A stretch of DNA of 64,000 bases, from positions 1 to 64,000 of the forward strand of contig NZ_JARBTM010000015.1 of the NCBI RefSeq assembly GCF_029240175.1, in the 5' to 3' direction. Made by a program: the position numbers and the translations under genes. Positions 11,641 to 63,962 of the stretch are shown here, piece by piece (position 1 is the first letter of the stretch; each line of letters opens with the position of its first letter). The notes beneath the pieces were generated by a model that did not search any database, was not told the DNA's origin, and saw nothing but the letters and a program-made list of their open reading frames with translations. The DNA is from Anaerosolibacter sp. (GTDB lineage Bacteria; Bacillota; Clostridia; Peptostreptococcales; Thermotaleaceae).

Positions 11641-11887
11641 AAAAGAGAAAATAAAGACGATGATGAGAAGAGTAAACCTAGGAAGTAGTTTCAGCGAGTT
11701 GGTGATAGTGAGAGACCAATACGATACCTATGTCGAAGAACAGCTCGGAGTTGCTAACCGAAATTCATTGGGAAAGTAGGCTTAGACGGAGCCAAACCGT
11801 TATAGATTGGACAGTATCGATTTATAGATAATATTTCCGTACTGATAAAGTGAGCCGTATAGCTAATTTGGGTGGTACCGCGGAAGC
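11641..11887 (+). promoter_or_regulatory. T-box riboswitch, probably tRNA-Asn responsive
   Basis: The leader ends with the T-box sequence GGGTGGTACCGCGG (11870-11883), the part that pairs with the uncharged tRNA acceptor end. Upstream lies the stem I region. A candidate specifier AAC (Asn) is at 11756-11758, on the 3' side after the apical region; the choice is by eye and is not certain. Downstream genes make Asn-tRNA(Asn) by the two-step route, which fits an asparagine sensor. Uncharged tRNA should favour read-through. Confidence 0.88.
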
Positions 11888-11932
11888 AAGCCTTTCGTCC
11901 CTGTTTTACAGGGATGATGGGCTTTTATTTAT
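11888..11932 (+). terminator. T-box regulated terminator
   Basis: AAGCC..TCGTCCCTG paired with CAGGGATGATGGGCTT followed by TTTA/T-rich sequence. The 5' arm is shared with the antiterminator helix formed by the T-box. Confidence 0.85.
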
Positions 11933-26970: not shown

Positions 26971-26981
26971 AATAGAAAGTA

Positions 26982-27096
26982 TCGCGCTGAATTCCTAAAA
27001 CTTGGAAACGGGGGAACCATTTGTGGGGTGAATCTCATTCATGAGTAGGGTTAGTCTTCTTTCGACCCGAATCCGTCAGCTAACTTCGTAAGCGTA
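26982..27096 (+). promoter_or_regulatory. c-di-AMP riboswitch (ydaO-yuaA class)
   Basis: The conserved ydaO blocks occur in order: CGCTGAAT, GGAAACGGGGGAACC, GGGGTGAATC, GAGTAGGGT, CCGAATCCGTCAGCTAAC and TTCGTAAGCGT. It lies between kamA and the acetyltransferase gene rather than at the head of the cluster. In this class c-di-AMP usually turns expression off. A following hairpin (about 27101-27140, AGGA..GACAT/ATGTC..TCCT) lacks a T-run, so the mode of control is unclear. Confidence 0.88.
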
Positions 27097-27171
27097 GAAA
27101 GAGGAGAATGTGATGACATGATCCATATGTCCATTTTCCTAAACAATGATGTATAAAGGAGATGAATAGTT

Positions 27172-52423: not shown

Positions 52424-52452
52424 TTGAAGGTTAAGGGATTATCTGCTACAAT
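52424..52452 (+). promoter_or_regulatory. Promoter of the fluoride operon
   Basis: TTGAAG (52424-52429), 17 bases, TACAAT (52447-52452); start near 52459, 40 bases before the fluoride aptamer. Confidence 0.65.
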
Positions 52453-52498
52453 AGGAATATATTTGAAATTACCACATTGAATTAAATGATTAATCAGC

Positions 52499-52558
52499 AA
52501 GGGAGATGAAGCTCTCCTGGGATAGCATCCAAAGCGTCTTTTGACTAATAGCTTCTAC
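52499..52558 (+). promoter_or_regulatory. Fluoride riboswitch 1 (crcB motif)
   Basis: The element opens with GGGAGATGAAGCTCTCC and ends GACTAATAGCTTCTACC. These are the two conserved strands of the crcB motif, which form the F-/Mg2+ pocket and pseudoknot. An extra small helix (TGGGATAGCATCC) lies between. Its 3' strand is the 5' arm of the terminator below, so fluoride binding should permit read-through into crcB. Confidence 0.88.
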
Positions 52559-52598
52559 CAATATGTATACAATTGTGTGCATTTGGTAGGAGCTTTTT
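52550..52598 (+). terminator. Fluoride-riboswitch terminator 1
   Basis: AGCTTCTACCAA pairs with TTGGTAGGAGCT, extended by wobble pairs inside, then TTTTTATTTT. Confidence 0.9.
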
Positions 52599-52637
52599 AT
52601 TTTATGAATTAGAACTGCGTGAAAGGGTGGATGTGTT

Positions 52638-53039
52638 ATGTGGTCAAAAATTTTTGCGTTGGGGTTAGGAGGATTTCTTGGGAGTAACTTGAGATACTGG
52701 ATTTCAAACTGGGTAATGGAACGCCTCGGACCATATTTTCCTTATGGAACATTAGCAGTAAATGGAATAGGGTGCTTTATTTTAGGATTCATCACTGTGT
52801 ACGGAAATGAAACGATTGAAATCACGCCAACTTTTAGGGTTTTCATAGCTCCAGGAATGATCGGTGCATTGACCACATTTTCAACCTTTTCCTTAGAATC
52901 TTTTAACCTTATCAGAGAATCAAACTATACATCAGCAGTGATAAATATAGCATTAAATATTATTATTGGACTATTTGCTGTAGAGTTGGGCTTTCTTGCT
53001 GCAAAAGCGTTTGCTGTTACAGCCAATGAAGTAGCATAG
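52638..53039 (+). CDS. crcB: Fluoride exporter FluC/CrcB
   Basis: The 133-residue, four-helix membrane protein has the Fluc signature GGFLGSNLRYWIS, NGIGCFILGF and GALTTFSTFSLE, whose Phe and Thr side chains line the fluoride path. A single gene here implies a homodimeric dual-topology channel. AAAGGGTGG precedes the start. It is the first gene after the fluoride riboswitch and 10 bases before the next. Confidence 0.95.
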   Translation: MWSKIFALGLGGFLGSNLRYWISNWVMERLGPYFPYGTLAVNGIGCFILGFITVYGNETIEITPTFRVFIAPGMIGALTTFSTFSLESFNLIRESNYTSAVINIALNIIIGLFAVELGFLAAKAFAVTANEVA

Positions 53040-53049
53040 GGGGATGTTT

Positions 53050-53382
53050 ATGAGGGTACAGGGAAAGGGAAAATTAATCAAAATTTATATTTCTGAAAGT
53101 CATAAATATAAAAGTAAGCCTTTGCATCATGTCATAGTAGAAAGAGCAAAAAAAGAAGATATGGCAGGTATAACAGTATACAGAGGCATAGAAGGTTTTG
53201 GAATGGACCATCATATTCACAGTACCCATATATTAACTTTGTCTGATGATCTACCATTGGTTTTGGAAATCGTAGATGCGGCAGAGAAAGTAGATCAGTT
53301 CCTGCGTTGTCTAGACGAACTGATAAAAGAAGGCTTTGTAATGATTGTAGATGATGTGAATATCATCAAGTATCTGAAATAG
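53050..53382 (+). CDS. DUF190 protein (fluoride-locus PII-like)
   Basis: The 110-residue protein matches DUF190 (KLIKIYISESHKYKSKPLHH, HIHSTHILTLSDDLPLVLEIV), a small family with a PII-like ferredoxin fold frequently linked to crcB. The exact role is not known; ligand binding to modulate the exporter is plausible. ATG 53050 is used because the GGGGG ribosome binding site touches the earlier ATG at 53044. Confidence 0.88.
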   Translation: MRVQGKGKLIKIYISESHKYKSKPLHHVIVERAKKEDMAGITVYRGIEGFGMDHHIHSTHILTLSDDLPLVLEIVDAAEKVDQFLRCLDELIKEGFVMIVDDVNIIKYLK

Positions 53383-53446
53383 ATAGAGAATGAATGGTAT
53401 TTAGGCCAGAAAATGAGTCCAGAACTTATTGTCAGGAGTGAGCGGA

Positions 53447-55216
53447 ATGTTAACACAGTTGAATATGCTATTGGATAAATACATCATAGCCATTCAAGCC
53501 TTAAAGGATATAGCAGAGCATATTGAAAACGAAGAACTATTAAGCCTGATAAAACAACAGGCAGAAAAAATAGGAAACACAGAATTCCATATAGTAATCA
53601 TTGGACAGTTTAAGAGGGGAAAATCTACCTTGATCAATTATTTCTTAGGGGATGATATTCTTCCTACTGGTGTAATACCCATTACCTCTATTATCACTCA
53701 TATACGGTATAGTAATAAACCTAGAACAGTTGTAACATTTAAGAACTCTAAAACCTTAGAGGTTAACCTAGGAAAGATAGATCAATATATTTCTGAGCAG
53801 CATAATCCTCAAAATGTGAAACAAGTAGAAAAAATTGATATTTATTATCCGGCAGTAATCTTAAAAAATGGTTTGGTATTAATTGATACTCCAGGTATTG
53901 GATCAATACATAGACATAATACCAAAGAAGCATATAGATATTTACCCCAGGCAGATGCAGCTATATTCCTTATTTCCTCCGATGCACCCATATCAGAATT
54001 AGAGCTTGATTTTTTATCAGAAATAAAGAGGTATTTTCAAAAAGTATTCTTTGTTCAGAATAAAATAGATTACCTTTCTGAAGATGAGAAAAAAGAGAGT
54101 CTGCTTTTTTCTGCGAATGCCATATCCAAACATCTAGGAAAAGAGATAAACATCTATCCTGTATCTGCAAGGTTAGCCCTTGAAGGGAAAAAAGAGAAAA
54201 ATACTACTGCCTTTAAAAACAGCAGTATGGCTTTGTTCGAGGATGTTTTAGAGAAATTTTTACTGAAGGAAAAGGGAGATTATTTACTGAAGAGCTACGA
54301 GGAGAAACTAGATTATATCATTCAAGCCACAAAGGAACAGATTGATTTTCAAATTAGCATATTAAATAGCCCCATAGAAGTTTTAGAGCAGCAACTAGAA
54401 GAATTCAAGAGCAAGGCGGCTGAGGTTGCTAGATTAAAGAAGGAAGCTTTAGTTTTAGTGGAAATGGATTTGAAAGCTGTAATCGACTTGGTTGAGAATG
54501 ATATAGTTGGTTTCCGTACTCGCAATGGAAAGATAGTTAAGGAAGGTCTTACAAACCTCTATTATCAGAATCAAAACATGAAATTTAAGGAATTATCCTC
54601 TTTTTTAAATGCCAAGCTTGAGCTATTTATTGAAGATGCTTACTCTGAATGGGACAGAGAACAGAAAATCAAGCTCAAAGAGGACTATGGGATTATTATT
54701 AAAAACTTTACAAATAGATTGAATGAAGCCATTGATTTCATAAATGGTGTTACCTACGAAGTATTTCGTCTAAAAATTGCTCAACCATTGGATGAAATGG
54801 CTTTTGTGGATAAAGATAGGTTCTTTTTCAAATTTGGAAGCTCAAGTCCAGCATTTCTACTGCCTAAAATTAAGGACTTTCTATTTCTTCTTCCTAAAAA
54901 AATAAGAGATAAGATCATGCTTTCAGATTTAATAGACCGTGTAGATGAGGAACTTGAAAAGAATGGAAACAATCTTAAATGGGACTATAGCTGTAAGCTT
55001 AAGGATAGCAAATTTATCTTTGAAAGGGTCTACCAAGAAAAAGTCGATCAAATTATTGAAAATGTTGAAGAGATTTTGAAGAAAACATTGGAATTGAGAA
55101 ATAAAGAAAGAGCTTCTGTTGAAGCCCGAGTCAGTCTTTTTAAACAGCTGGATTCTAGGCTTCATGAGATTAAAGGAACATGGATTAGACTATATGAGGT
55201 GACAGGAGGTAAATAG
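53447..55216 (+). CDS. Bacterial dynamin-like GTPase in the fluoride operon
   Basis: The 589-residue protein has a dynamin-type GTPase domain: G1 GQFKRGKST (residues 53-61), switch I threonines in ITSIITHIRY, G3 DTPGIGS (147-153) and G4 NKID (205-208). A long helical stalk (about 290-580) follows, with a hydrophobic patch (SSPAFLLPKIKDFLFLLPKK, about 465-485) that could be a membrane paddle. ATG 53447 has CAGGAGTGAG upstream. It follows DUF190 after 65 bases with no terminator, so it is likely fluoride-induced. Bacterial dynamins remodel or protect membranes; a role in fluoride stress would be new. Confidence 0.87.
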   Translation: MLTQLNMLLDKYIIAIQALKDIAEHIENEELLSLIKQQAEKIGNTEFHIVIIGQFKRGKSTLINYFLGDDILPTGVIPITSIITHIRYSNKPRTVVTFKNSKTLEVNLGKIDQYISEQHNPQNVKQVEKIDIYYPAVILKNGLVLIDTPGIGSIHRHNTKEAYRYLPQADAAIFLISSDAPISELELDFLSEIKRYFQKVFFVQNKIDYLSEDEKKESLLFSANAISKHLGKEINIYPVSARLALEGKKEKNTTAFKNSSMALFEDVLEKFLLKEKGDYLLKSYEEKLDYIIQATKEQIDFQISILNSPIEVLEQQLEEFKSKAAEVARLKKEALVLVEMDLKAVIDLVENDIVGFRTRNGKIVKEGLTNLYYQNQNMKFKELSSFLNAKLELFIEDAYSEWDREQKIKLKEDYGIIIKNFTNRLNEAIDFINGVTYEVFRLKIAQPLDEMAFVDKDRFFFKFGSSSPAFLLPKIKDFLFLLPKKIRDKIMLSDLIDRVDEELEKNGNNLKWDYSCKLKDSKFIFERVYQEKVDQIIENVEEILKKTLELRNKERASVEARVSLFKQLDSRLHEIKGTWIRLYEVTGGK

Positions 55217-55218
55217 TA

Positions 55219-55617
55219 ATGGGAGATATTAAAGAACTTCTCGAGTTTGATGGGGAAACACAGAGAGGTTTTGACAAATATATAAAGGACCACGATTTAT
55301 CTGAGGAAAAAGCTATTAGAAATCTTACCATTATAGGCTTAAGCTATTATTATGCAGACAAGCGAATAAAAGAATTAGAAGAGAATGGAGATTTTTCATT
55401 AAAGATATGCAGAGAGCTAATGGTTACAAGTGCAAAGTATGCATCCCTGAAGTTTAACTATTTTGAGATGAAGAAGGATTATGACAGACTTAAGCTCCAG
55501 GTATCAGGCTTGGTCCATGAGAATAAGCAATATCAAGCCAGTTTACAGCATGCAGCCAAAACCCTAAGCGACTATAGCCGAGAGCTAACTGTGTACAAGG
55601 AAAAAGCAAAGTTATAA
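55219..55617 (+). CDS. Small coiled-coil protein, probable partner of the dynamin-like GTPase
   Basis: The 132-residue protein is almost wholly helical, with a central part (YYYADKRIKELEENGDF) and a C-terminal coiled coil (about residues 80-130). It starts 2 bases after the GTPase stop with GGAGGTAAA inside the overlap, so translation is coupled. No family recognised. Strict linkage suggests that the two proteins act together. Confidence 0.75.
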   Translation: MGDIKELLEFDGETQRGFDKYIKDHDLSEEKAIRNLTIIGLSYYYADKRIKELEENGDFSLKICRELMVTSAKYASLKFNYFEMKKDYDRLKLQVSGLVHENKQYQASLQHAAKTLSDYSRELTVYKEKAKL

Positions 55618-55736
55618 TTAATTCGAATTTTCTACCAATCAGAAGTGTTGTCTAATAATGAATATTAAAGGCATCATGTATAAAGTGATCATTAGGGATT
55701 TTAAATAAAACCTATGATAGTTTTAACTATCTGTAA

Positions 55737-57035
<1,299 letters not shown>

Positions 57036-57071
57036 GGAAAAAATAGACCAATCTATATGGACCAGTAATTA

Positions 57072-57102
57072 GAAAGCCACACTTATGCTAGTGTGGCTTT
57101 TG
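57072..57102. terminator. Terminator after eno
   Basis: AAAGCCACACT-TATGCT-AGTGTGGCTTT with a T tail; also ends the convergent gene. Confidence 0.9.
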
Positions 57103-57114
57103 ACATCCCTGTAA

Positions 57115-57975
57115 TTATTTTCGCCGTTGAGCGTTAATATATGAAATTAATTTACTAACATCATCGCCTCGTTTCAATGGGTACAAAAGAATAACTTTTT
57201 GTGATCCATTCAAACGAATACATAGTTGAATAAGATTAGAAGAAGTATCAGGGATGCGCTCTAAATCTCTTATTTGATTTAATGGAATATATGTCCATAC
57301 CCCGCCAAATTTACTGATATCTGCATTTTCATATTCTTCTTTATAGATAATGAATTCTTCATCGGTAAGAATCGCTAATTGATTAGGCATTAGGAGATTT
57401 TTGGTGATAAACCAAGAATTTTCAAAAATGGCTGGCTGAAATACTGCACTAATTACCTTTTGACTAGGCAAAAGGCAATTATCTGTATAGTTTTGGAGTC
57501 TGCAGGTTAGGTCTTCGGTGCTATAGAAGCTGTTACGATTGTCTGATGAGATGGTTTTTATCCTTGTATTTATTATGGAATCACGTATGGTTTTCATGAT
57601 TTCTTTGAAGAAAGATTCCACTACGGTATTATATTCGATTATAGAACTAACAATATTGTTATCAATCACTGATACTATTCTAATCCATGAATATAGAAGT
57701 ATTTTTCCGTGTTCAATACGAATAATGTTTTCAAAAGGATGACAAGCAATCAAAATACTGTTTTCTACACTTTCTAGGCTGTAGACCAGGTTTTTGTATA
57801 TAAACAGCAATTTGTCATTGATGTTTCGTTTTCTCCACATGTCCTGTGGGGCATAGATTATACTAGGCAGTGTATTTGTTTCATCAAGAATTTGAGAAAG
57901 GGATTTCTGAAATATTTGTGGAATATCCTTATGATTATTCAGCAGTCTTGCCCATTTCATGGAAGCTGAAGCCAT
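57115..57975 (-). CDS. Hypothetical protein with PH-like regions
   Basis: The 286-residue protein has no signal or membrane segment. The C-terminal 95 residues (LAILTDEEFIIYKEEYE, VWTYIPLNQIRDLERI, KVILLYPLKRGDDVSKLISYI) have the strand pattern of bacterial PH domains. A similar pattern (IIRIEHGKILLYSWIRIVSV) occurs near residue 90, so two PH-like units are possible. ATG 57975 has AAAGAGGTGAG upstream. It sits between the fluoride operon and the second fluoride riboswitch, on the opposite strand; a link is not shown. Confidence 0.65.
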   Translation of the reverse strand: MASASMKWARLLNNHKDIPQIFQKSLSQILDETNTLPSIIYAPQDMWRKRNINDKLLFIYKNLVYSLESVENSILIACHPFENIIRIEHGKILLYSWIRIVSVIDNNIVSSIIEYNTVVESFFKEIMKTIRDSIINTRIKTISSDNRNSFYSTEDLTCRLQNYTDNCLLPSQKVISAVFQPAIFENSWFITKNLLMPNQLAILTDEEFIIYKEEYENADISKFGGVWTYIPLNQIRDLERIPDTSSNLIQLCIRLNGSQKVILLYPLKRGDDVSKLISYINAQRRK

Positions 57976-58100
57976 AATGCTCACCTCTTTCAAAAGTATC
58001 CGATATAACCATTATATACCATTTGCCCTAATTTGAGGTTGTTATAAAGGGTAAAATTTAGAATATTAAGTATTAATTGAAAATAAGTTTTCTTTAAGTA

Positions 58101-58128
58101 TTGACCAATGTATAACTTGTAGTATAAT
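58101..58128 (+). promoter_or_regulatory. Promoter of the antiporter gene
   Basis: TTGACC (58101-58106), 16 bases, TATAAT (58123-58128); start near 58135, just before the fluoride aptamer. Confidence 0.75.
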
Positions 58129-58157
58129 AGAAATTGTTGTAAAAATTTGCTATAGAA

Positions 58158-58216
58158 TGATAGGTGATGGAGCTCGCCTTTAACCATTGCAGCAAATGCA
58201 ATTAATGGCTCCTACT
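58158..58216 (+). promoter_or_regulatory. Fluoride riboswitch 2
   Basis: ATAGGTGATGGAGCTCGCC, then TTTAACC, a small hairpin ATTGCAGCAAATGCAAT and TAATGGCTCCTAC give a textbook crcB motif. The 3' end overlaps the 5' arm of the terminator. Confidence 0.92.
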
Positions 58217-58247
58217 TAGGCTACACTAGCCTTAGTAGGAGTTTTTT
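58209..58247 (+). terminator. Fluoride-riboswitch terminator 2
   Basis: CTCCTACTTAGGCT pairs with AGCCTTAGTAGGAG, followed by six T. Confidence 0.92.
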
Positions 58248-58311
58248 GTGTTTTTAGGCAACTTTTTCCTTTCATTTAGCACATTTATTCTTTCAGAGGA
58301 GGCGGTAAGGT

Positions 58312-59493
58312 ATGGCACTTAGTCTTAGTGTAATTGTTTTACTAGGATTGTTAGTAAACAAAGTTTTTGACAAGCTGAAACTACCTGGCTTATTAGGCAT
58401 GTTGATTTTGGGTATTGTGATTGGTCCCTACGGATTGAACTTTATTGGGAAGGATATACTTAGTATTTCTTCTGAATTGAGGAAAATAGCACTTATTGTA
58501 ATACTACTTAGGGCGGGTTTAGGTATCAAAAAAGAAACCCTTAATAAAGTTGGAGTGCCTGCAATTAAAATGAGCTGTATCCCTGGATTGTTTGAAGGCT
58601 TCACCATTCTATTTGTTGCCAGTTATCTGCTTGGTGTAACAAAAGTTGAAGCGGGTATGTTAGGATTTATCATTGCAGCCGTATCCCCAGCTGTGGTGGT
58701 ACCATCCATGCTTAGCTTTATTCACAGGAAGATGGGAGAAAAGAAGGGAATTCCAACTTTGATACTGGCGGGAGCCTCCATTGATGATGTTTTTGCAATT
58801 ACCCTTTTCTCAACTTTTCTAGGACTATATGGAGGAAGTAACATCAATGTAACCAGAAAAATTTTAGATATACCAATCTCTATTGTCATAGGGATTTTGC
58901 TAGGAGTTGTCATCGCTGTAGGTATTGTAACCATTTTTCAAAGCTTCCATATTCGAGATACGAAGAAGGCGTTGATTATATTAGGTACTGCTATTGTCCT
59001 CACAAGTCTTGAGGATGCGTTAAAGGATATTGTGCCTGTAGCAAGCCTTTTGGGTGTCATGACCATTGGGTTTATTATCCTGGAGAAACAGCCCAAAGTG
59101 GCAAATCGACTTGCTGTAAAATTTAATAAGATTTGGATATTTGCAGAACTTTTGTTGTTTGTTCTCGTTGGTGCTCAAGTAAATATTTACGTAGCGCTTG
59201 ACTCTGGTTTAATAGGGCTTGTAATCATTGCAATTGGGCTTATAGCTAGAAGTGTTGGTGTGCTATTGTCCGTGGCGGGAACGAATTTGAACTGGAAGGA
59301 AAGGTTTTTCTGTATATTTGCATATATTCCAAAGGCAACAGTTCAAGCAGCCATAGGGGCAGTCCCGTTGGCAGCTGGTGTGCCATCTGGAGACATCATT
59401 CTTGCTATTTCAGTACTATCCATTCTTATTACTGCTCCATTGGGAGCAATAGCGATTAAGGCTTCAGGGGAAAAATGGCTCAGTGTAGATTGA
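58312..59493 (+). CDS. Cation/proton antiporter under fluoride riboswitch control
   Basis: The 393-residue protein has about twelve membrane helices with the CPA-type pattern LLGMLILGIVIGPYGL near the N terminus and the ion-binding Asp pair in GASIDDVFAI. Riboswitch-linked antiporters of this family are known in fluoride regulons and may export F- or correct the proton load of HF entry. GAGGAGGCGG precedes the ATG. The transported ion cannot be told from sequence alone. Confidence 0.88.
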   Translation: MALSLSVIVLLGLLVNKVFDKLKLPGLLGMLILGIVIGPYGLNFIGKDILSISSELRKIALIVILLRAGLGIKKETLNKVGVPAIKMSCIPGLFEGFTILFVASYLLGVTKVEAGMLGFIIAAVSPAVVVPSMLSFIHRKMGEKKGIPTLILAGASIDDVFAITLFSTFLGLYGGSNINVTRKILDIPISIVIGILLGVVIAVGIVTIFQSFHIRDTKKALIILGTAIVLTSLEDALKDIVPVASLLGVMTIGFIILEKQPKVANRLAVKFNKIWIFAELLLFVLVGAQVNIYVALDSGLIGLVIIAIGLIARSVGVLLSVAGTNLNWKERFFCIFAYIPKATVQAAIGAVPLAAGVPSGDIILAISVLSILITAPLGAIAIKASGEKWLSVD

Positions 59494-61437: not shown

Positions 61438-61542
61438 ATTTACTTATGGATGAATGTATTATATAATTCTAATATGCATGTACCATATTATAGGTGCATG
61501 ACCAGTAATTGTAAGATTATTAAAAACAATTAAATACAAGAA

Positions 61543-61651
61543 TCATTTTCCGAGTTATTTCTTCTAAAGAGAAATCCATGAAGATATAACCGTTGGTTGA
61601 ACCAGAAGGGTTTAGTGAGAAATCCCTAAGCCTCCCGTTAGGAAAGGAAAA
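61543..61651 (+). promoter_or_regulatory. Moco/tungsten-cofactor riboswitch upstream of tupA copy 2
   Basis: ATTTTCCGAGTTAT at the 5' side and GCCTCCCGTTAGGAAAGGAA at the 3' side match the Moco motif and align base for base over much of the length with the element before tupB. A terminator follows at 61690. Confidence 0.87.
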
Positions 61652-61689
61652 TACTTTATTATTGAGCACATATAATTTGTGTTTATTTA

Positions 61690-62950: not shown

Positions 62951-63005
62951 GAGTACATTCTTCAAGGATTGAGATAGAAATAATATATAAAGATATACAA
63001 TTACA

Positions 63006-63113
63006 TATCACTCCGAGTGTGTAGTGCCTGTAGTCTATAGACCATGGTTTGCATACCGATAGGGTATTATTGGAAATGATAATGCCTCCCGCGTGGAAAG
63101 GAGAATTGGATAA
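63006..63113 (+). promoter_or_regulatory. Third Moco-type riboswitch, orphan
   Basis: CACTCCGAGTGTG and GCCTCCCGCGTGGAAAGGAG are the paired conserved strands of the Moco motif, with a weaker P1 than the other two copies. The only downstream frame is a truncated P5C dehydrogenase. The original gene has probably been lost. Confidence 0.7.
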
Positions 63114-63137
63114 GCATAGATATGTTCTGATGCTGTT

Positions 63138-63807: not shown

Positions 63808-63962
63808 ATTGAATAGGAAAGTTCTACTTTCCTATTCAATAAAAAATTAGGGGTGCAGGGGAAGTATTCCCATGCTGTAGTCAGAGGGGTGCTCAGGCTG
63901 CCTAGCAGCCGTCGAAGGGGAACTAGGTTCCCCTAGCGAAGGCATCGTTAGATGCATTTTTT
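63808..63962 (+). repeat. Cluster of four hairpins at the window end
   Basis: Hairpins: ATTGAATAGGAAAGT with its complement (63808-63840); GGCTG/CAGCC (63896-63910); GGGGAAC/GTTCCCC (63917-63933); and GCATC/GATGC with TTTTTT (63942-63962). The string of GC-rich stem-loops ending in a T-run looks like a structured RNA end or a genome-repeated palindromic element. The rest to 64000 has no visible gene. Confidence 0.5.

What the first reader, a model, noticed from the sequence alone, without database searches (positions are those of the whole stretch)
52424..59493. Two-riboswitch fluoride-response island
Two fluoride riboswitches 5.7 kb apart control crcB-DUF190-GTPase-coiled-coil-eno and a cation/proton antiporter. 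Seen directly: both crcB motifs, their terminators, and no terminator visible from crcB to eno. Known: crcB exports F-, riboswitch-linked antiporters occur, enolase is inhibited by F-. Inference: one stress module combines export, target supply and membrane maintenance.
Basis: partly seen in the sequence, partly recalled or inferred. Interest (0 to 1): 0.75.

Follow-up and report, generated by a model that had tools for sequence, protein, structure and literature searches.

The report
Fluoride-switched operon with dynamin-like GTPase
Two fluoride-sensing RNA switches precede a fluoride exporter operon and an antiporter in this bacterium, and the operon includes a membrane-type (dynamin-like) GTPase whose relatives in other bacteria and an archaeon are often also found behind fluoride switches, pointing to an overlooked part of the fluoride defence.

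Summary
Both fluoride riboswitches are real (RF01734, 38.4 and 45.8 bits, the only two found in the genome), each with an overlapping terminator; crcB-DUF190-GTPase-coiled-coil-eno runs without a visible internal terminator to a strong one after eno. A same-genus genome carries riboswitch-crcB-DUF190-eno with only GTPase and coiled-coil missing, which supports eno as an operon member. crcB, extra enolase and riboswitched antiporter are known kinds of fluoride gene. The closeness of the two riboswitches is not conserved: a regulon, not an island. The new part is the GTPase, a bacterial dynamin-like protein. Its family lies co-directionally behind a fluoride riboswitch in 22 of 24 informative genomes of a 299-genome survey (two riboswitches sub-threshold), against 0 of 19 distant dynamins (only 6 of these in riboswitch-bearing genomes), and in 14 of 18 named loci, an archaeon included. 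From the riboswitch side it follows 16 of 80 high-scoring fluoride riboswitches (15 of 70 genomes; antiporters 17, a lower bound). Six aimed paper searches found no report; the key 2012 gene list could not be read. Induction is untested, and the GTPase's membrane role is inferred from its fold.

The parts
52424..52452 (+). promoter-like site (TTGAAG, 17, TACAAT with TG extension) before the first riboswitch
   Evidence: consensus match only, 9 of 12; the same hexamers are seen at this place in G534
52493..52564 (+). fluoride riboswitch aptamer 1
   Evidence: RF01734 38.4 bits, E 4.4e-7
52550..52594 (+). intrinsic terminator overlapping the 3' end of aptamer 1, followed by a U run; fluoride-ON logic inferred
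   Evidence: -26.6 kcal/mol, z -7.2
52638..53039 (+). crcB, Fluc-type fluoride exporter, 133 aa
   Evidence: TIGR00494 107 bits, cut-off 80.45; PF02537 99 bits, cut-off 32.9
53044..53382 (+). DUF190 (COG1993) protein, 112 aa, PII-like
   Evidence: PF02641 116.8 bits, cut-off 23.4; P-II 24.1 bits, just below its cut-off of 25; related to TM0021, 1o51, E 3.8e-24
53447..55216 (+). dynamin-like GTPase, 589 aa, fluoride-riboswitch-linked family
   Evidence: PF00350 110.1 bits, cut-off 27; fold matches IniA/BDLP/mitofusin; linkage surveys
55219..55617 (+). small coiled-coil-like protein, 132 aa
   Evidence: no family above cut-off; same place after the GTPase in two Geosporobacter loci, 49-51% identity
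55755..57035 (+). second enolase, 426 aa
   Evidence: TIGR01060 689 bits, cut-off 300; 67% identical to the other copy; catalytic residues conserved
57072..57101 (+). terminator-like hairpin closing the operon
   Evidence: -18.1 kcal/mol, z -5.7
58101..58128 (+). promoter-like site (TTGACC, 16, TATAAT) before the second riboswitch
   Evidence: 11 of 12 consensus match
58154..58221 (+). fluoride riboswitch aptamer 2
   Evidence: RF01734 45.8 bits, E 1.7e-9
58207..58243 (+). intrinsic terminator overlapping the 3' end of aptamer 2
   Evidence: -23.1 kcal/mol, z -5.4
58312..59493 (+). cation/proton antiporter, 393 aa
   Evidence: PF00999 154.2 bits, cut-off 26.2

Best explanation
When fluoride rises in the cell, the two aptamers bind it with Mg2+ and prevent their overlapping terminators, so transcription runs into (1) crcB-DUF190-GTPase-coiled-coil-eno and (2) the antiporter. 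CrcB lets fluoride out, DUF190 (PII-like) probably tunes CrcB, the second enolase makes up for activity that fluoride inhibits, and the antiporter restores cytoplasmic pH after HF entry. The GTPase belongs to a widespread dynamin-like family that is repeatedly placed behind fluoride riboswitches; it most likely remodels, tethers or patches the cytoplasmic membrane (IniA/BDLP manner) under fluoride stress, perhaps with small partner proteins. Shown by sequence: riboswitches, terminators, gene identities, operon order in relatives, GTPase-riboswitch linkage, dynamin-type sequence and modelled fold. Inferred: induction by fluoride, co-transcription across the 137-nt gap before eno, DUF190's role, and the membrane role of the GTPase.
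For: Riboswitches and terminators. Operon: G534 has riboswitch-crcB (90%)-DUF190 (95%)-eno (92%) with the GTPase and coiled-coil genes missing and the GTPase's ribosome-binding stretch still present; GTPase directly followed by eno in L068 and L099, with a riboswitch between in L062, and with one gene between in the archaeal L021. crcB-DUF190-GTPase order in L100, and in L012, L014, L015 with an extra riboswitch before the GTPase. Linkage of GTPase and riboswitch: 14 of 18 named loci at gathering score; 22 of 24 informative genomes against 0 of 19 distant dynamins, Fisher p 2.6e-10; 16 of 80 riboswitches from the riboswitch side. Dynamin type: BDLP 1.5e-48 by profile; IniA Foldseek 3e-22, VIA Z 25.9 over 514 residues. 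Enolase and antiporters as known fluoride genes: passages of PMC11139923 and PMC5533749.
Against: No expression data. The GTPase is patchy (27 of 299 genomes in the phylum; 9 of 245 in the class at E 1e-60; absent from the same-genus G534) and in several genomes broken, truncated or a remnant (G115, G179, G186, G285, G550, G250), so it is not essential to the response. Exceptions: L103 (G587, 637 bits, intact) has no fluoride riboswitch near; G550 (broken) none; L008 has a Mg2+ M-box instead; G171's riboswitches are about 7 kb upstream; G264 has none near; L019 none; the more distant relatives G387, G521, G585, G598, G431 and G313 have none in their genomes. The distant-dynamin control is imperfect: only 6 of its 19 loci lie in genomes with any listed riboswitch. 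The modelled tip is low-confidence and only moderately hydrophobic; Foldseek TM-scores are low, 0.37 for IniA.
Confidence: 0.72

Rival explanations
1. The GTPase serves Mg2+ or general cation homeostasis rather than membrane shape: fluoride sequesters Mg2+, and the GTPase supports transporters or Mg2+-starved envelope functions.
For: In L008 the GTPase sits behind a Mg2+ M-box riboswitch (149.9 bits), next to a gene that has its own M-box and whose product I recognise as MgtE-like from its sequence.
Against: One case only: no M-box was near the GTPase in any of the 26 genomes searched for it; the dynamin-type fold points to membranes.
Confidence: 0.2
2. The GTPase is itself switched by fluoride: F- with Mg2+ and bound GDP forms a transition-state mimic that locks it in an assembled state, so that it acts as a fluoride-triggered effector.
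For: Fluoride-riboswitch linkage across phyla; GTPase motifs invariant in the 38 aligned sequences. Metal fluorides can trap dynamin-type GTPases, for example the PDB entry of Vps1 with GDP.AlF4- (listed).
Against: No sequence feature was found that separates it from other dynamins in this respect; trapping usually needs millimolar fluoride (recalled).
Confidence: 0.1
3. Only crcB and DUF190 answer to the riboswitch; GTPase and eno are transcribed mainly from their own promoters.
For: Gaps of 64 and 137 nt; weak promoters cannot be excluded.
Against: In G534 eno follows DUF190 at about the same distance, and window 55618-55733 has no blastn match there, apart from a short AT-rich inverted repeat seen by eye in both; in relatives the GTPase is often the first gene after a riboswitch (11 of 80).
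Confidence: 0.12
4. The GTPase is a passenger that travels with fluoride genes without a fluoride function.
For: Patchy distribution and frequent decay.
Against: Direct placement behind a riboswitch in distant lineages with different neighbours; in three Actinomycetota loci the GTPase has a riboswitch separate from that of crcB; one plasmid record in 72,556 with a relative at E 1e-30.
Confidence: 0.05

Closest known systems
Fluoride-riboswitch operon of Enterobacter cloacae FRM (ppaC-uspA-eno-gpmA-crcB-orf5249, PMC5533749, passages read)
   Same: fluoride riboswitch; crcB plus an extra enolase in one operon; export plus target supply
   Different: the six genes named include no dynamin-like GTPase; the word GTPase does not occur in its main text
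Riboswitch-linked Na+/H+ antiporters (review PMC11139923, passages read)
   Same: antiporter directly behind its own fluoride riboswitch
   Different: nothing notable; an ordinary member
IniA / BDLP / Cj0411-Cj0412 bacterial dynamin-like proteins
   Same: profile match and fold over most of the length, GTPase motifs
   Different: about 14-21% identity in the structural alignments; a link to fluoride riboswitches was found in no paper by the searches
DynA of Bacillus (NF052648)
   Same: dynamin GTPase domain
   Different: 110.7 bits against a cut-off of 1600; the long (over 1100 aa) dynamins in the survey are not near listed fluoride riboswitches

Membership tests
Fluoride riboswitch RF01734 | covariance-model score above gathering threshold | tested here: met
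   38.4 and 45.8 bits, threshold 34
Fluoride riboswitch RF01734 | fluoride-dependent gene control | not testable with these tools
   overlapping terminators only
CrcB/Fluc exporter | curated equivalog score | tested here: met
   TIGR00494 107 bits, cut-off 80.45
Enolase | curated equivalog score and catalytic residues | tested here: met
   689 bits, cut-off 300; S41, H154, E163, E204, D241, E284, D311, K336, H364, R365, S366, K387 invariant in the 9 aligned enolases; their catalytic roles are recalled
Dynamin superfamily | Dynamin_N domain above cut-off, GTPase motifs | tested here: met
   PF00350 110.1 bits, cut-off 27; GxxxxGK[ST], DTPG and NKxD kept in the 38 aligned sequences
Dynamin superfamily | helical trunk with membrane-binding tip | tested here: inconclusive
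   helical trunk modelled, residues about 430-480 of low confidence; tip moderately hydrophobic
DynA equivalog NF052648 | curated score | tested here: not met
   110.7 bits, cut-off 1600
Cation/proton antiporter PF00999 | curated score | tested here: met
   154.2 bits, cut-off 26.2
Potassium/proton antiporter equivalog NF003716 | curated score | tested here: not met
   71.7 bits, cut-off 355; the ion is therefore left open
DUF190 | curated score | tested here: met
   116.8 bits, cut-off 23.4

The most novel reading that the evidence does not exclude
A dynamin-like GTPase family, present in several bacterial phyla and at least one archaeon, is a dedicated fluoride-defence protein, and fluoride acts on it twice: through the riboswitch that makes it and through GDP-metal-fluoride that locks it on the membrane.
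Probability: 0.1. Interest if true: 0.85.

Novelty: new variant of a known kind. Interest (0 to 1): 0.58.

Why it matters
Fluoride resistance is described mainly as export, pH repair and target replacement. A dynamin-like GTPase that follows fluoride riboswitches nearly as often as the antiporters do in this phylum sample would add a membrane-acting component, and would give bacterial dynamins, whose physiological triggers are mostly unclear (recalled), a defined inducer to test.

Tried and rejected
An island of two riboswitches: rejected, because the spacing is not conserved in the same genus or family. Plasmid spread: one distant match in 72,556 plasmid records at E 1e-30. Fluoride-insensitive enolase: no change at catalytic positions, so simple target supply is preferred; second-shell effects untested. 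M-box control as a family trait: only L008. Composition of the GTPase gene: GC 0.33 and GC3 0.31, near crcB and eno, no sign of recent foreign origin. Quick tree of 60 rows: riboswitch-linked rows are spread over the family rather than one clade (14 changes for RS against a shuffled mean of 17.5; 16 of 500 shuffles as low); two proteins stand in it twice under different labels, and four end branches are long.

Literature: ten searches, of which six aimed at the GTPase. Searches found no paper. The papers were judged from the listing only, as were those but one, PMC10119275, whose passages concern other things. The words GTPase and dynamin do not occur in the main text of the review PMC11139923, nor GTPase in PMC7266159, PMC2864571 or PMC5533749. 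Baker et al. 2012 (PMC4140402), which lists fluoride-riboswitch genes (recalled), is not held, so earlier mention there cannot be excluded.

Caveats of the counts. One search used stricter filters and did not list its weakest matches. Of 27 genomes with the family (26 at 329 bits or more, plus the two-piece G186; some copies are broken or partial), three (G001, G168, G243) were dropped because the contig ends 776 nt or less upstream. The window's own genome is one of the 24. Two of the 22 riboswitches are below the gathering score: G100 at 30.7 bits and G043 at 31.8, the latter found only by a more permissive scan that was not run on the control loci; without it the count is 21. Only 6 of the 19 control loci lie in genomes with any listed riboswitch, so part of the contrast is presence of riboswitches at all. 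Ten dynamin loci of 135 to 220 bits were left out of both sides: three have a listed riboswitch near (second copy of G100; G162, a fragment at a contig end; G035, 30.5 bits), two a weak one (G147, 29.7 and 24.6 bits), five none. The 80 riboswitches are the top of the list apart from the window's, not a random draw; 9 of the 70 genomes give more than one. Among the 16 with the GTPase, 9 carry a long uninterrupted match of 599 bits or more (one cut by the end of the stretch), L120 and L134 show the same broken gene of G186, L139 is a 73-aa remnant, and L184 ends with its contig. The profiles of the other families were built from GTPase neighbourhoods, so their counts, antiporters included, are lower bounds; 14 of 80 first genes were unassigned and 4 riboswitches had no gene run behind them.
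Full report
What is there. Two fluoride riboswitches lie at 52493-52564 and 58154-58221 (RF01734, 38.4 and 45.8 bits); they are the only two listed for the genome. Each overlaps, at the conserved 3' end of the aptamer, a strong hairpin followed by U residues (z -7.2 and -5.4). This is the usual arrangement in which ligand binding should prevent the terminator and raise expression (passage of Weinberg et al. 2010, PMC2864571). Downstream of the first come crcB, DUF190, a dynamin-like GTPase, a 132-aa coiled-coil-like protein and enolase, then a terminator-like hairpin (z -5.7). The two larger gaps show no structure beyond shuffles (z 0.02 and -0.06). The second riboswitch precedes a cation/proton antiporter.

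Is eno really in the operon? The best evidence is comparative. A genome of the same genus (G534) has the same riboswitch, crcB (90% identical), DUF190 (95%) and eno (92%), while window positions between about 53440 and 55733, the GTPase and coiled-coil genes, have no counterpart there. About 55 nt separate the two matching blocks, and the window's stretch around the GTPase's ribosome-binding site is still recognisable. I read this as loss of the two genes in G534, because Geosporobacter has riboswitch-GTPase-coiled-coil as well; gain in the window's lineage is not excluded. Most of the sequence upstream of eno, where a private promoter would sit, has no blastn match in G534, apart from the ribosome-binding region; a short AT-rich inverted repeat is seen in both. 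GTPase next to eno recurs in L068 and L099, in L062 with a riboswitch between them, and in the archaeal L021 with one gene between. The eno here is a second copy: the genome has another behind a gene that I recognise as triosephosphate isomerase. G534, G120 and G237 also have two enolases; in G375, 93% complete, only the copy next to the GTPase was found.

The GTPase. Relatives were sought without regard to riboswitches. Eighteen named loci came back, among them Bacillota, Actinomycetota, Thermodesulfobacteriota, Armatimonadota, a Parcubacteria-group genome, a cyanobacterium and a Methanolinea archaeon. Fourteen have a fluoride riboswitch at gathering score within 400 nt upstream of the GTPase on the same strand. 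Of the other four, one has a Mg2+ M-box (L008), one a sub-threshold fluoride match of 25.7 bits (L020), and two none (L019, the cyanobacterium; L022, where the gene is cut by the contig end). In 299 genomes of the window's phylum, the profile separates the family (26 genomes at 329 bits or more, plus a copy in two pieces in G186) from distant dynamins. Of 24 with enough upstream sequence, 22 have a same-strand fluoride riboswitch within 2.5 kb: 21, and G043 at 31.8 bits; that of G100 is also sub-threshold (30.7 bits). The two without are G171, whose riboswitches are about 7 kb upstream, and G264. Five of five class-level members above 400 bits, the window's own included, are also linked, G319 only by a 26.8-bit match and G381 with a stop inside the gene; the four weaker class-level matches are not. 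Of four closer relatives, G540 and G544 are linked, G587 is not, and G550 is broken and not linked.

From the riboswitch side, 80 high-scoring fluoride riboswitches of 70 genomes were read for the co-directional genes behind them, up to 4 kb: crcB in 33 genomes, antiporters in 17, the dynamin-like GTPase in 15 (16 riboswitches; it is the first gene in 11), DUF190 in 11. The counts of the other families are lower bounds. Fourteen first genes were unassigned; of the five of these that were looked up, three were CLC-type channels. The GTPase is therefore nearly as common here as the antiporters, which a review names as the next most common class after exporters (PMC11139923, passages).

What the GTPase does. 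Its closest solved relatives by profile are BDLP (1.5e-48) and IniA (9.4e-34). The AlphaFold2 model (mean pLDDT 84, pTM 0.61) matches IniA over 514 residues (Z 25.9, rmsd 9.8) and, over 315-341 residues, mitofusin-1 and Fzo1 with the highest Z. TM-scores to whole chains are low (0.37 for IniA), which I put down to different domain angles. GTPase motifs are kept in the 38 aligned sequences. The tip region has a short hydrophobic stretch followed by basic residues in the window's protein and close relatives, as expected of a membrane-touching tip but not proof. Membrane remodelling or protection under fluoride stress is thus the most likely role, by inference. Its neighbours differ between lineages (coiled-coil protein, DUF6062, zinc-ribbon HEAT protein, MoxR-type genes, MFS transporter), which suggests different partners around one core.

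Regulon, not island. In G534 the antiporter riboswitch is about 31 kb from the crcB one; in G544 it is about 3.3 Mb from the GTPase one along the record. The 5.7 kb spacing in the window is incidental.

Known and new. Enolase, antiporter and crcB under fluoride riboswitches are known (PMC11139923 and PMC5533749, passages read). A dynamin-like GTPase in this role was not found by the searches listed under Tried and rejected. The 2012 gene list could not be read, so I claim novelty only with that limit.

Noticed in passing
L008 6670-6841 and 7001-8761: A close relative of the GTPase sits directly behind a Mg2+ M-box riboswitch instead of a fluoride one, next to a gene with its own M-box whose product looks MgtE-like (recalled).
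   Followed up: partly
L072, L074, L077, L078, L104, L139: Genes of this GTPase family are in several genomes broken, split, truncated or reduced to a remnant.
   Followed up: no
L064, L065, L066, L074, L082, L083: DUF6062 genes lie between a fluoride riboswitch (weak ones in L082 and L083) and the GTPase; DUF6062 is the first gene behind 5 of 80 fluoride riboswitches.
   Followed up: no
L056, L057, L059, L063, L072: The GTPase is followed by MoxR-like and DUF58-like genes (names recalled) and a third gene that in L072 matches DUF4129; the same three clusters recur in all five loci.
   Followed up: no
window 57115-57993, minus strand: ORF of 292 aa without a family; a 37% identical homologue lies right after the GTPase and coiled-coil genes in Geosporobacter L007.
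   Followed up: no
L005 9209-9965: The eno after the GTPase lacks its middle (residues 45-220) in Geosporobacter subterraneus; group II intron sequences follow.
   Followed up: no
window 7087-7217, 61536-61665, 62999-63119: Three Moco/tungsten riboswitches in one 64-kb window, plus a T-box at 11651-11905, a c-di-AMP riboswitch at 26975-27108 and a Clostridiales-2 RNA at 63841-63922.
   Followed up: no
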